Part shown: positions 8,388-16,330 of the stretch, piece by piece
Numbering within the stretch: position 1 is the first letter of the stretch
Layout of the letters: each line of letters begins with the position of its first letter
NCBI RefSeq assembly: GCF_005222955.1
Contig: NZ_LWUA01000041.1
Location: 1-32,646, forward strand
DNA length: 32,646 bases
Origin: Blastococcus sp. CCUG 61487
GTDB taxonomy: Bacteria > Actinomycetota > Actinomycetes > Mycobacteriales > Geodermatophilaceae
Direction: 5' to 3'
Notes under the pieces: model-generated
Seen by the model: only the letters and a program-made list of their open reading frames with translations
Databases searched by the model: none
What the model was told of the DNA's origin: nothing
Program-made: the position numbers and the translations under genes

Positions 8388-9533
8388 TCAGCTCTCCGTG
8401 AGCCGCCCCAGCCGCTCCACGGCCTCGACGAACTCCTCGACCATGTCGAGCACGACGCGCCGGGCGGGCCGGACGGTGCTCATGCTCGCGCTGCCCACGA
8501 TCTGGCCGACGAAGTAGGTGGCCAGGTCGTTGGCCGGCGTCCCCGGCTTGTCGGCGACCCGGTTGATCCGCGCCAGCGCCTCGCCGACCAGCATCGGCTG
8601 CAGCGGCATCGGCAGGGTGCCCGGGCTCTCGGGCGCCTCCCACTCCTCGGTCCACGGGCTGCGGAGCATCCGGGCCGGCTTGCCGGTCATCGACCGGGAG
8701 CGCACCGTGTCGCCGAGGCCCGCGCGGAGGAACTTCTCCTTGACCGCGGGGTTGGTCTCGGCCTCCTCGGTGGTCAGCCACACCGAGCCGCACCACACGC
8801 CGTCGGCACCCAGGGCCATGCCGGCGGCGAGCTGCCGGCCCCGTCCGATCCCGCCGGCGGCCAGCACCGGCAGCGGGCCGACCGCGTCGACCACCTCCGG
8901 CACCAGCACCATCGTGGCGATCTGGCCGGTGTGCCCGCCGGCCTCGGTGCCCTGCGCGACGATCAGGTCCGCGCCGGCCTCCTTGTGCCGGACCGCGTGG
9001 TGCACCGAGCCGGCCAGCGCCGCCACCGGGATGCCGGCACCGTGCGCCCGCTCGATGAAGTGCGGCGGCGGCGGGCCCAGCGCGGACGCGACGAGCTTGG
9101 TCTCGTGCGCGAACAGCACGTCGAGCAGTGGGGCCATGCTCTTCGGGTCCACCCGCATGCCGCCCACGCCGGAGCTGCGGCCGCCCGTCGGAGCGTCGCC
9201 CGGCAGCGGCGGGATGTCGTACTTGTGCAGCAGCCCGTCGAGCCACTGGCGGTGCTCGTCGGGCAGCAGGTCGCCCAGGGCGTCCCGGTCCAGGCCACCG
9301 GCCTCGGCGCCGGCGAACTTCTCGGGCACGAGCAGGTCGACGCCGTACGGGCGGCCCTTCACCTCCTGCTCGATCCAGGTCAGGTCGATGTCGAGCTGCT
9401 CGGGGGTGTGGGCGACGGCGCCCAGGACGCCGAGCCCGCCGGCGTTGGTGACGGCGGCGACGACGTCGCGGCAGTGGCTGAAGGCGAAGATCGGGACGTC
9501 GATGCCGACGAGGTCGGTGGCGGCTGTGCGCAC
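8388..9533 (-). CDS. Nitronate monooxygenase / 2-nitropropane dioxygenase-like FMN enzyme
   Basis: This 381-aa TIM-barrel flavoprotein has NAGGLGVLGAV at residues 30-40, AQGTEAGGHTG at 193-203 and the FMN-phosphate block AAGGIGRG at 225-232, followed by GADGVWCGS. The motifs fit the nitronate monooxygenase superfamily. Members near acyl-CoA genes often have no demonstrated nitroalkane activity and may be other FMN oxidoreductases or enoyl reductases. The GTG at 9533 has GAGAGG 8 nt upstream. It lies 34 nt downstream of the TIGR03084 gene and is the last gene of the carboxylase operon before the hairpin at 8337-8366. The substrate is not determinable from sequence. Confidence 0.88.
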   Translation of the reverse strand: MRTAATDLVGIDVPIFAFSHCRDVVAAVTNAGGLGVLGAVAHTPEQLDIDLTWIEQEVKGRPYGVDLLVPEKFAGAEAGGLDRDALGDLLPDEHRQWLDGLLHKYDIPPLPGDAPTGGRSSGVGGMRVDPKSMAPLLDVLFAHETKLVASALGPPPPHFIERAHGAGIPVAALAGSVHHAVRHKEAGADLIVAQGTEAGGHTGQIATMVLVPEVVDAVGPLPVLAAGGIGRGRQLAAGMALGADGVWCGSVWLTTEEAETNPAVKEKFLRAGLGDTVRSRSMTGKPARMLRSPWTEEWEAPESPGTLPMPLQPMLVGEALARINRVADKPGTPANDLATYFVGQIVGSASMSTVRPARRVVLDMVEEFVEAVERLGRLTES

Positions 9534-9567
9534 GGGTGGGGCCTCTCTCGGGGGTGGGTCGATCGGA

Positions 9568-14693: not shown

Positions 14694-16330
14694 AGCCGGA
14701 ACACCCCGAACTGCTCCGCACCCTCGACCGGACCGTTCGCGACGAACGACAGGCACATGCCCAGCACCGTGCGGGTGTCGCGCGGGTCGATGATCCCGTC
14801 GTCGCTCACCGCCCCGGTGGCCCGCAGCGCCAGCGAGCCCTCCTCCTGGCCCGCCTCGACCATCGCGACGATCTTCGCGTCCTCCTCCTCGTCGAAGGGG
14901 ACGCCCTTGCGCGCGGCCTGGCCGCGGCGCACCTGCGACATGACGCCGGCGATCTGCTTGGGCCCCATCACCGCGATCTTCGCCGTCGGCCAGAGGAAGG
15001 TGAACCTGTTGCCGAACGCCCGGCCGGACATGCCGTACGTGCCCGCGCCGTAGGACGAGCCGATGATCACCGTCAGGTGCGGCACCGTCGAGTTGGTGAC
15101 GGCGTTGAGCATCTGGCTGCCCTTCTTGACGATGCCCGCCGCCTCGAAGTCCTTGCCCACCATGTAGCCGGTGATGTTCTGCAGGAAGACCAGCGGGACG
15201 TCGATCCGGTTGCACAGCTGGATGAAGTGCGCCGCCTTCTGCGCGGAGTCGGGGTGCAGCACGCCGTTGTTGCCGAGGATCCCGACCGGGTAGCCGTGGA
15301 TCGACGCCCAGCCGCAGACCAGCGTCGGGCCCCAGCGCGGCTTGAACTCCTCGAACCGCGAGCCGTCGGCGACGCGGGCGATGACGTCGCGGACGTCGAC
15401 CGGCTGGCGCAGGTCGCGGCTGACCAGGCCGAGCAGCTCCTCGGGGTCGTGGATCGGCTCGTCCGCGGTCAGCGAGGGCTCCGGGCCGGCCTTGCGCCAG
15501 TTGAGGTGCGAGACCGCCTCGCGGCACAGCCGGATGGCGTCCATCTCGTCCTCGGCGAAGTAGTCGCCCAGGCCGGAGACGTCGGCGTGCAGCCGGGCGC
15601 CGCCGAGGGTCTCGTCGTCGCTCTCCTCGCCGGTGGCCATCTTGACCAGCGGCGGGCCGGCGAGGAACACCTTCGACTGCTGGTCGATGACGACGACGTA
15701 GTCCGACAGCCCCGGCTGGTAGGCGCCACCCGCGGTGGAGGAGCCGAAGACGACGCAGACCGACGGGATGCCCAGCTTGGACAGCTCGGTCATCTCGTAG
15801 AACTGCCGGCCGCTCTCGGCGAAGTGCGAGGTCTGCGCCGAGCGTCCACCGCCCCCTCCCCCGGGCCGCAGGTCCGCGCCGGCGGACTCCACGAAGCTCA
15901 CGTAGGGCATCCGGTTCTCGCGCGCGATCTCCAGCGCCCGGGCCCACTTCTTCAGCGCGTAGGGGGTCAGCGCGCCGCCCAGGACCGTCGGGTCGTTGCC
16001 CATGACGACGCACTCGACCCCGGCGATGACCCCGATGCCGACGACCATCCCGCCGCCCACCGTGTAGTCCGAGCCCCAGCCGGCCAGCGGGCTGATCTCC
16101 AGGAACGGGCTGTCCGGGTCGAGGGTGTGCGCGATCCGCTCGCGGATCGGCAGCTTGTCCCGCTGCCGCAGCCGCTCGGTCGCCTTCTCGCCGCCGCCGG
16201 CCGCCGCCTCCTCGAGCAGCTCGTCCAGCGCGGCCAGCTGCTCGAGCATGTCGGCCCGGTTCCGCTGGAAGCTCTCGCTCCCCGGATCGAGCGAGGAGCG
16301 CAGCGGCGGGGCGAGCAGCGAGCGGGCCAT
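14690..16330 (-). CDS. Acyl-CoA carboxylase beta subunit (carboxyltransferase)
   Basis: This 546-aa subunit transfers carboxylate from biotin to an acyl-CoA. It has two crotonase-fold halves. The N-terminal half contains GGGMVVGIGVIAGVECVVMGNDPTV (core GGGMVVGIG) and SSTAGGAYQPGLSDYVV; the C-terminal half contains GILGNNGVLHPDSAQKAAHF, LQNITGYMVG and GSSYGAGTYGM. These resemble methylcrotonyl-CoA (LiuB/AccD-type) and geranyl-CoA (AtuC) carboxyltransferases more than propionyl/acetyl-CoA ones. It is the first gene of the operon. The ATG at 16330 has no Shine-Dalgarno but sits 6 nt after a TAGGTT -10 box, predicting a leaderless mRNA. MCC versus GCC specificity cannot be decided without structural alignment. 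Confidence 0.94.
   Translation of the reverse strand: MARSLLAPPLRSSLDPGSESFQRNRADMLEQLAALDELLEEAAAGGGEKATERLRQRDKLPIRERIAHTLDPDSPFLEISPLAGWGSDYTVGGGMVVGIGVIAGVECVVMGNDPTVLGGALTPYALKKWARALEIARENRMPYVSFVESAGADLRPGGGGGGRSAQTSHFAESGRQFYEMTELSKLGIPSVCVVFGSSTAGGAYQPGLSDYVVVIDQQSKVFLAGPPLVKMATGEESDDETLGGARLHADVSGLGDYFAEDEMDAIRLCREAVSHLNWRKAGPEPSLTADEPIHDPEELLGLVSRDLRQPVDVRDVIARVADGSRFEEFKPRWGPTLVCGWASIHGYPVGILGNNGVLHPDSAQKAAHFIQLCNRIDVPLVFLQNITGYMVGKDFEAAGIVKKGSQMLNAVTNSTVPHLTVIIGSSYGAGTYGMSGRAFGNRFTFLWPTAKIAVMGPKQIAGVMSQVRRGQAARKGVPFDEEEDAKIVAMVEAGQEEGSLALRATGAVSDDGIIDPRDTRTVLGMCLSFVANGPVEGAEQFGVFRL

What the first reader, a model, noticed from the sequence alone, without database searches (positions are those of the whole stretch)
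8388..16330. Tightly coupled AtuA-carboxylase module of unknown substrate
Six genes (CT, BC-BCCP, AtuA, TetR, TIGR03084, NMO-like) form one unit; the first five overlap by 4, 8, 4 and 4 nt. Known Pseudomonas atu and liu clusters also carry acyl-CoA dehydrogenase, hydratase and lyase genes, absent here, while TIGR03084 and an FMN enzyme are added. This may be a distinct actinobacterial pathway for a branched, terpenoid or steroid side-chain acyl-CoA. It is the best candidate here for an undescribed system.
Basis: partly seen in the sequence, partly recalled or inferred. Interest (0 to 1): 0.7.

Follow-up and report, generated by a model that had tools for sequence, protein, structure and literature searches.

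The report
Carboxylase-lyase operon for branched acyl-CoAs
A soil actinobacterium carries a compact operon, probably acquired from a distant bacterial class, whose carboxylase and AtuA protein most likely trim side branches off terpene-like acids; it belongs to a widespread, poorly understood family that seems to include an operon of unknown purpose in mycobacteria.

Summary
The six genes and their overlaps are real, but not a lone undescribed system. They are a reduced form of a widespread module: carboxyltransferase, biotin carboxylase, AtuA and TIGR03084, usually with acyl-CoA dehydrogenase, hydratase or ligase. Mycobacterial loci show the same core in the order reported for accD2/accA2 (Rv0971c-Rv0976c), whose role is reported as undetermined. 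The carboxyltransferase is not a leucine-pathway MCC: it lacks the MCC insert and gate Phe, has Ser there, and falls on the geranyl-CoA-carboxylase side of the MCC-rooted tree; the genome has a separate MCC-type enzyme. The nearest copies are in Acidimicrobiia, so horizontal transfer is likely. New here: (1) an inverted-repeat operator GGTAA-N16-TTACC in 12 of 13 loci with this TetR and 1 of 35 without; (2) AtuA is distantly homologous to E. coli CmlA, deposited as citramalate lyase subunit A, so AtuA is probably the missing acetate-releasing lyase; (3) in 246 sampled genomes all 98 with TIGR03084 also have AtuA. Best reading: a beta-branch is removed from an enoyl-CoA larger than methylcrotonyl-CoA, probably acyclic terpenoid, by gamma-carboxylation, hydration and lyase cleavage. 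Substrate and biochemistry are untested.

The parts
16347..16372 (-). Inverted repeat GGTAA-N16-TTACC, probable operator of the module's TetR
   Evidence: Conserved in four congeneric upstream regions; at most 1 mismatch in 12 of 13 CT upstream regions of loci with this TetR, 1 of 35 without; 14 hits of a looser-spaced pattern in 3.3 Mb of fetched loci, some of them the same place fetched twice
16337..16365 (-). Promoter-like TTGACT - 17 nt - TAGGTT overlapping the repeat; ATG 6 nt after the second hexamer, so a leaderless message is possible
   Evidence: Read from sequence; largely conserved in four genomes. The second hexamer matches TATAAT at only 3 of 6, and the generic promoter scan reported nothing here
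14690..16330 (-). Carboxyltransferase (CT) subunit, 546 aa, geranyl-CoA-carboxylase-side, gate residue Ser
   Evidence: PF01039 430 bits; trees; gate alignment
12744..14693 (-). Biotin carboxylase - BT - biotin carrier subunit, 649 aa, GTG start, biotinylation motif EAMKM
   Evidence: the motif as biotinylation site is recalled
10961..12751 (-). AtuA, 596 aa: PF07287 domain fused to PF23544 domain; probable acetate-releasing lyase
10347..10964 (-). TetR-family regulator, 205 aa
   Evidence: PF00440; co-occurs with the operator
9568..10350 (-). TIGR03084 metal-binding protein, 260 aa, His47/Glu133/His137 invariant in 28 aligned sequences
8388..9533 (-). NMO/FabK-like FMN enzyme, 381 aa
   Evidence: PF03060 166 bits; best solved relatives are FabK and putative nitroalkane dioxygenase; 57-61% identical in seven loci of Acidimicrobiia-type modules
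7447..8259 (-). TesB-like acyl-CoA thioesterase, downstream; also next to the module in L046, not in L047 or L048 (not counted as core)
6709..7428 (-). Dienelactone-hydrolase family protein, downstream; also in L046 only (not counted as core)

Best explanation
[not shown]
For: CT: all 49 AtuA-linked CTs of the first set form one branch (97/97) apart from the MCC clade (99/100), which holds the genome's own second CT. Rooted on MCC, Pseudomonas AtuC and 63 AtuA-linked CTs fall on one side of a branch (100/99). Gate: three solved MCCs and the genome's own MCC-type CT have Phe and the 3-residue insert; 63 of 63 AtuA-linked CTs on the GCC side lack the insert and have G 34, S 14, A 8, T 7; two AtuA-linked CTs on the MCC side of the branch keep the insert but have Ala or Gly. 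In PMC4673880 (parts 1-2 of 4 of the text read) this residue sets geranyl- versus methylcrotonyl-CoA preference by mutagenesis. Separate MCC-type CT, BC and dehydrogenase in the genome (L093). AtuA: the profile reaches PDB 9erq, 'AtuA family protein | Citramalate lyase, subunit A', whole-sequence E 0.0027; that E. coli protein is over the PF07287 cut-off (68 bits against 22.8), pairwise hhalign E 2.5e-6 and probability 88.8, 26 of 67 highly conserved AtuA positions identical against 61 of 263 overall. Coupling: TIGR03084 in 27 of 27, 11 of 16 and 30 of 37 CT-linked AtuA loci. Operator. Transfer: window AtuA is at least 70% identical to 15 of 26 copies from records titled Acidimicrobi- (range 58-82%), but at most 62% in its own family outside the three near-identical congeners; CT nests with L179.
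Against: No biochemistry. The window gate is Ser, not Gly, in a clade with its own loop insertion, so pocket size is uncertain. In the first tree AtuC's place was unresolved, drawn next to the equally long PCC-like outgroup with a long-branch warning. The AtuA-CmlA link is distant: best domain i-E 0.17 by hmmsearch; the window AtuA alone did not find 9erq, one of two other family members tried found it only at E 0.58 and the other not at all; the lyase name is the depositors'. E. coli CmlA's neighbour is a DUF4387 protein unlike AtuA's C-terminal domain. TIGR03084 also sits in other settings, for instance on Streptomyces plasmids, and is missing from the two proteobacterial carboxylase-AtuA clusters looked at, so it is not needed for AtuA chemistry as such. 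No structure could be predicted.
Confidence: 0.58

Rival explanations
1. It is a second 3-methylcrotonyl-CoA carboxylase for leucine/isovalerate.
For: Best-scoring solved relatives of the CT are MCC beta subunits; the BT domain matches the MCC alpha model.
Against: Gate Phe and insert absent; outside the MCC clade; the genome has its own MCC-type CT with BC and dehydrogenase (L093) and an HMG-CoA lyase on another contig. For the related mycobacterial enzyme, a Mycobacterium smegmatis accD2-accA2 deletion grew similarly to wild type on isovalerate (PMC4347857, passages read).
Confidence: 0.06
2. The module serves removal of C24 alkyl branches of plant sterol side chains (C28 carboxylation, hydration, aldol cleavage).
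For: The published route has a C28 carboxylation followed by hydration and C24-C25 cleavage (PMC6678751, passage read); the word 'carboxylase' does not occur in that paper's main text. A Rhodococcus opacus plasmid copy lies beside Mce, SCP2 and ketosteroid-isomerase-related genes, and a Mycolicibacterium copy beside P450, thiolase and MaoC genes.
Against: No KshA match in this genome. The published route assigns cleavage to Ltp3/Ltp4, not AtuA. In two phytosterol transcriptome papers the words 'carboxylase' and 'acyclic terpene' do not occur in the main text. Steroid genes near the other copies were not counted.
Confidence: 0.13
3. A biosynthetic or alpha-carboxylating acyl-CoA carboxylase (PCC/ACC-like).
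For: General models only name it as an acyl-CoA carboxyltransferase, and the best NCBIfam model is methylmalonyl-CoA decarboxylase alpha, far under its cut-off. One of the best-scoring solved chains (9tps) is deposited as a propionyl-CoA carboxylase beta subunit, though its printed sequence has the MCC-type segment with Phe.
Against: Aligned with MCC and GCC from its first residues on; the N-terminal helix there is absent from PCC according to PMC4673880. Other chains named PCC score less than half as high. A CT on contig C3, 29% identical to the window CT and used as the PCC-like outgroup (its PCC label is my inference), is very distant.
Confidence: 0.05
4. AtuA is not a lyase but a scaffold or CoA-handling protein, and cleavage is done by HMG-CoA lyase from elsewhere in the genome.
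For: An HMG-CoA lyase gene exists on contig C223 (295.6 bits, cut-off 246); a title in the reference list of PMC9636800 says LiuE of Pseudomonas also has HIHG-CoA lyase activity.
Against: Homology to CmlA with shared conserved positions; AtuA tracks the carboxylase through several gene orders.
Confidence: 0.2

Closest known systems
Mycobacterial accD2/accA2 operon Rv0971c-Rv0976c (echA7, fadE12, accA2, accD2, fadE13, Rv0976c)
   Same: Same core AtuA-CT-BC. Named Mycolicibacterium loci L200 and L201 and the unnamed same-order L109 read AtuA-ACAD-CT-BC-ACAD-ECH, which fits the reported Rv order; gate Gly, no insert in these loci
   Different: No adjacent TIGR03084 or NMO in these loci; dehydrogenases and hydratase present; the L109 CT is 56% identical to the window CT. 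The Rv genes themselves were not fetched: that Rv0976c is AtuA-like and Rv0975c is fadE13 is recalled and inferred from order
Pseudomonas atu cluster (AtuC/AtuF geranyl-CoA carboxylase, AtuA)
   Same: Carboxylase plus AtuA; GCC-type gate region (no insert, small residue)
   Different: TIGR03084 added; dehydrogenase and hydratase genes absent in the window; AtuC sits on an end branch of 1.7 substitutions per site. The Pseudomonas cluster was not fetched and its gene content is recalled; two proteobacterial plasmid clusters were and have no TIGR03084
Methylcrotonyl-CoA carboxylase (LiuB/LiuD, AccD1/AccA1)
   Same: Same subunit architecture, same gamma-carboxylase lineage
   Different: Gate Phe and three-residue insert absent; separate clade; MCC-type paralogue present in the genome
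Citramalate lyase CmlA of E. coli (PDB 9erq, 9evf; ECs_0760)
   Same: PF07287 member; 26 of 67 highly conserved AtuA positions shared
   Different: Free acid substrate (by name), separate DUF4387 gene next to it instead of the fused PF23544 domain
Mycothiol-dependent maleylpyruvate isomerase family
   Same: MDMPI N-terminal domain, with conserved His/Glu/His
   Different: Copies lie in Desulfatitalea, a lineage not known (recalled) to make mycothiol; substrate unknown

Membership tests
Geranyl-CoA-carboxylase-type (GCC) CT | Extended N-terminal helix present (not PCC) | tested here: met
   Alignment to MCC and GCC starts at residue 8-12; helix inferred from the aligned region, no structure
Geranyl-CoA-carboxylase-type (GCC) CT | No three-residue MCC insert; Gly in place of MCC Phe191 | tested here: inconclusive
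   Insert absent; residue is Ser, not Gly
Geranyl-CoA-carboxylase-type (GCC) CT | Clusters with AtuC rather than MCC | tested here: inconclusive
   Yes at 100/99 when rooted on MCC, but AtuC is a long branch and was unresolved next to the PCC-like outgroup
Geranyl-CoA-carboxylase-type (GCC) CT | Carboxylates geranyl-CoA | not testable with these tools
   Needs assay
Methylcrotonyl-CoA carboxylase | Phe gate with insert; falls in MCC clade | tested here: not met
Mycobacterial accD2-type operon | AtuA, CT and BC in one operon | tested here: met
Mycobacterial accD2-type operon | Two dehydrogenases and a hydratase in the operon | tested here: not met
   None in the window
AtuA family (PF07287) | Full-length profile match over cut-off | tested here: met
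   536 bits, cut-off 22.8, positions 1-436 of 437
Citramalate-lyase-like C-C lyase | Homology to CmlA including conserved core | tested here: met
   Distant: both over the PF07287 cut-off; hhalign E 2.5e-6; 26 of 67 conserved positions identical
Citramalate-lyase-like C-C lyase | Cleaves a beta-hydroxy acid to acetate | not testable with these tools
   Needs assay
TIGR03084 | Score over curated cut-off | tested here: met
   321.2 bits against 247.95
Mycothiol-dependent isomerase | His/Glu/His metal site | tested here: met
   H47, E133, H137 invariant in 28 rows; that these are the MDMPI metal ligands is recalled
Mycothiol-dependent isomerase | Uses mycothiol | not testable with these tools
   Desulfatitalea copies argue against it, on recalled knowledge of where mycothiol is made
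Nitronate monooxygenase / FabK | Score over NCBIfam FabK cut-off | tested here: not met
   TIGR03151 164 bits against 453; PF03060 is over its own cut-off

The most novel reading that the evidence does not exclude
Probability: 0.33. Interest if true: 0.75.

Novelty: new variant of a known kind. Interest (0 to 1): 0.55.

Why it matters
AccD2-AccA2 is described as an open question in mycobacterial metabolism, and its operon is reported as 20-300-fold induced in hypoxia and stationary phase (PMC4347857 and PMC9283954, passages read). Tying that operon type to a small gate residue, to AtuA as a probable lyase and to TIGR03084 gives a concrete reaction order that can be tested in harmless bacteria. 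It would also suggest functions for two large protein families, PF07287 and TIGR03084.

Tried and rejected
Leucine MCC: rejected on gate, tree and paralogue. PCC/ACC: rejected on lineage. Loss of TetR and TIGR03084 in L048, my first reading (and notebook entry 1), was wrong: tblastn found all six genes, with AtuA and TIGR03084 each split over two reading frames. Mycothiol dependence of TIGR03084: weakened by the Desulfatitalea copies (L191, L211). Exclusive pairing of TIGR03084 with AtuA: rejected; 14 loci around TIGR03084 genes that lie far from AtuA (L117-L130, one of them, L123, about 12 kb from AtuA) showed no shared partner that I could name. Sterol context: KshA search negative in this genome. 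Single-protein PDB search for AtuA gave nothing convincing; the profile reached 9erq. PDB search for TIGR03084 gave only a chance RecA match, and its profile only weakly YfiT (E 0.25). Generic promoter and terminator scan found none. In what those searches listed and the passages I read, I saw no role given for AccD2-AccA2 or for TIGR03084; the library holds open-licence papers only.

Rows left out: for the gate table and the second tree I used 25 chosen rows of the first CT set (which held 56) and the CTs of the named set that were covered over 90% (L137 and L197 dropped as duplicates of L046 and L060). The 27 class-level AtuA loci were chosen by eye from the 131 genomes with AtuA, not at random. 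The named set is the best 80 of 579 confirmed matches, so it leans to close relatives. The protein alignments are selections; L182, L152 and L155 were left out because the stretch held a stop codon, and L169 was also left out of the TIGR03084 alignment.
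Full report
Anatomy. The six genes run on the minus strand from 16330 to 8388 with 4, 8, 4 and 4 nt overlaps and a final 34-nt gap. All six have family matches over their Pfam or NCBIfam cut-offs. The carboxyltransferase (CT) is preceded by TTGACT-17 nt-TAGGTT, whose second hexamer ends 6 nt before the ATG, which would suggest a leaderless message; the second hexamer is a poor match to the consensus and the generic scan reported no promoter. The genome is a 4.1 Mb draft, 98.65% complete. The closest named relative by AtuA is Candidatus Blastococcus massiliensis (92%, L137), so the genus is probably Blastococcus (Geodermatophilaceae, recalled); this rests on that match and on contig length.

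Not a leucine carboxylase. The genome has five Carboxyl_trans matches. One, on contig C40, sits with BC and an acyl-CoA dehydrogenase and is 48% identical to the window CT; it carries the MCC gate. The MCC/GCC structure paper PMC4673880 (first two of four parts read) gives rules: an N-terminal helix marks the gamma-carboxylase lineage, and MCC has a Phe with a three-residue insert where GCC has Gly. The window CT aligns with MCC and GCC from its first dozen residues, lacks the insert and has Ser. In a set of 70 CTs, three solved MCCs and the genome's own have Phe and insert, and AtuC has Gly without insert. All 63 AtuA-linked CTs on the GCC side lack the insert and have Gly (34), Ser (14), Ala (8) or Thr (7). 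The remaining two AtuA-linked CTs (L186, L211) keep the insert but have Ala and Gly. In the first tree the 49 AtuA-linked CTs form one branch (97/97), apart from MCC (99/100); AtuC's place there was unresolved beside the long PCC-like outgroup. With MCC as root, AtuC and the 63 AtuA-linked CTs fall together (100/99), though AtuC is again a long branch.

A widespread module. AtuA occurs in 36 of 112 family genomes. Around AtuA loci with at least 6 kb on both sides: in the family set (47 loci, 36 with such flanks) 27 of 36 have the CT, and of these 27 all have BC and TIGR03084, 20 a dehydrogenase, 21 a ligase, 15 a hydratase, 3 the NMO. In the class set (27 loci, 21 with flanks) 16 of 21 have the CT, with TIGR03084 in 11 of 16 and dehydrogenase in 13 of 16. 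In the named set (80 loci, 43 with flanks) 37 of 43 have a CT (one of them MCC-like), with TIGR03084 in 30, hydratase in 30 and dehydrogenase in 21 of 37. Detection used a few reference proteins at 1e-10, so partner counts are lower bounds, and the sets overlap slightly. Gene order differs among groups, so the association has survived several rearrangements. CT-linked loci with none of dehydrogenase, hydratase or ligase were L046-L048 (Blastococcus; L137 is the same place as L046), L101, L136 and L157.

Link to mycobacteria. The named Mycolicibacterium loci L200 and L201 and the unnamed same-order L109 read AtuA-ACAD-CT-BC-ACAD-ECH. This fits the reported operon Rv0971c-Rv0976c with echA7, fadE12, accA2, accD2 and fadE13 (PMC9283954 and PMC4564863, passages read). 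That Rv0976c is the AtuA-like gene is recalled and inferred from order; the Rv genes were not fetched. PMC4347857 (passages read) reports that the accD2-accA2 deletion in M. smegmatis showed no growth or lipid phenotype under the conditions tested, that the substrate segment differs from MCC, and that its role is an open question.

AtuA as lyase. A profile of 43 AtuA proteins finds PDB 9erq, named 'Acyclic terpene utilization AtuA family protein | Citramalate lyase, subunit A', at whole-sequence E 0.0027 (best domain 0.17). The single window protein had not found it; two other family members found it at E 0.58 or not at all. The matching E. coli gene is ECs_0760 (full-length match to 9erq, 970 bits), in the glutamate mutase / methylaspartate ammonia-lyase cluster. 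PMC4682846 (passages read) had noted a DUF1446 gene there and an unclear fate of citramalate. ECs_0760 is over the PF07287 cut-off; pairwise hhalign gives E 2.5e-6; 26 of 67 positions conserved in at least 95% of AtuA rows are identical, against 61 of 263 overall. Citramalate lyase releases acetate from a beta-hydroxy acid, which is the chemistry needed after carboxylation and hydration. This is inference; the lyase name is the depositors'.

Regulation. Aligning the four congeneric upstream regions exposed GGTAA-N16-TTACC over the promoter. Scored on 48 CT upstream regions, 12 of 13 loci with the window-type TetR have it with at most one mismatch (9 exact), against 1 of 35 without. That one is L180, a short contig that ends inside AtuA, so its TetR state is unknown. 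Four of the 12 are the loci from which the motif was drawn; the independent count is 8 of 9. Many of the 35 are other module types in which the CT is not the first gene, so the fair comparison is within the Acidimicrobiia-type modules: of those with the CT first and no TetR detected (L139, L143, L145, L146, L154), 0 of 5 have it. This is a regulator-operator pair predicted from sequence, not shown by binding.

Origin. Window AtuA is at least 70% identical to 15 of 26 copies from records titled Acidimicrobi- (range 58-82%), but at most 62% in its own family outside the three near-identical congeners. The CT nests with an Acidimicrobiales MAG (L179) inside an Acidimicrobiia group (the group 100/99, the join to L179 89/89). 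A Modestobacter copy of the same family (L060) also falls in this group, apart from the Blastococcus trio, so more than one transfer, or an older one, is possible. L179 has the same six genes in the same order with one hydratase added between TIGR03084 and NMO. Horizontal transfer from such a donor, followed by gene loss, is the simplest account.

Limits. No assay, no AtuA model, a distant lyase homology, and a substrate inferred from the gate and names only. KshA was not found, which makes aerobic steroid degradation in this strain less likely but does not exclude it.

Mended on the second look: AtuC's unresolved place in the first tree, the failed single-protein searches for 9erq, the fairer operator comparison, the identity ranges for the transfer, the recalled status of Rv0976c, and the promoter match.

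Noticed in passing
Own genome C228 (L082:4356-6125): A second AtuA, 45-46% identical, beside a zinc alcohol-dehydrogenase-like gene and no carboxylase nearby; the same pair recurs in five congeners (L080, L081, L083-L085).
   Followed up: partly
L048 (G016): The congeneric copy has AtuA and TIGR03084 each split over two reading frames; assembly error or decay not decided.
   Followed up: partly
L191 and L211 (Desulfatitalea): A sulfate-reducer genus carries AtuA next to TIGR03084 with an MCC-like CT; in L211, the one checked, the gate Phe is replaced by Gly while the insert is kept, hinting at independent gate opening.
   Followed up: partly
L224 (E. coli ECs_0759, ECs_0760): Annotated as acyl-CoA synthetase and methylaspartate ammonia-lyase, but they match DUF4387 and the protein of PDB 9erq (CmlA); likely misannotations.
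   Followed up: yes
L227 (Streptomyces goshikiensis plasmid): TIGR03084 inside what looks like a biosynthetic gene cluster; 34 Streptomyces plasmid records have a match.
   Followed up: no
L225 (Sphingobium WTD-1 plasmid): Carboxylase-AtuA cluster followed by methylmalonyl-CoA mutase-family and MeaB genes, perhaps hinting at a propionyl or branched acyl product.
   Followed up: no
window 17259-21503: AftD-type arabinofuranosyltransferase next to the module, on the far side of a FkbM methyltransferase gene.
   Followed up: no
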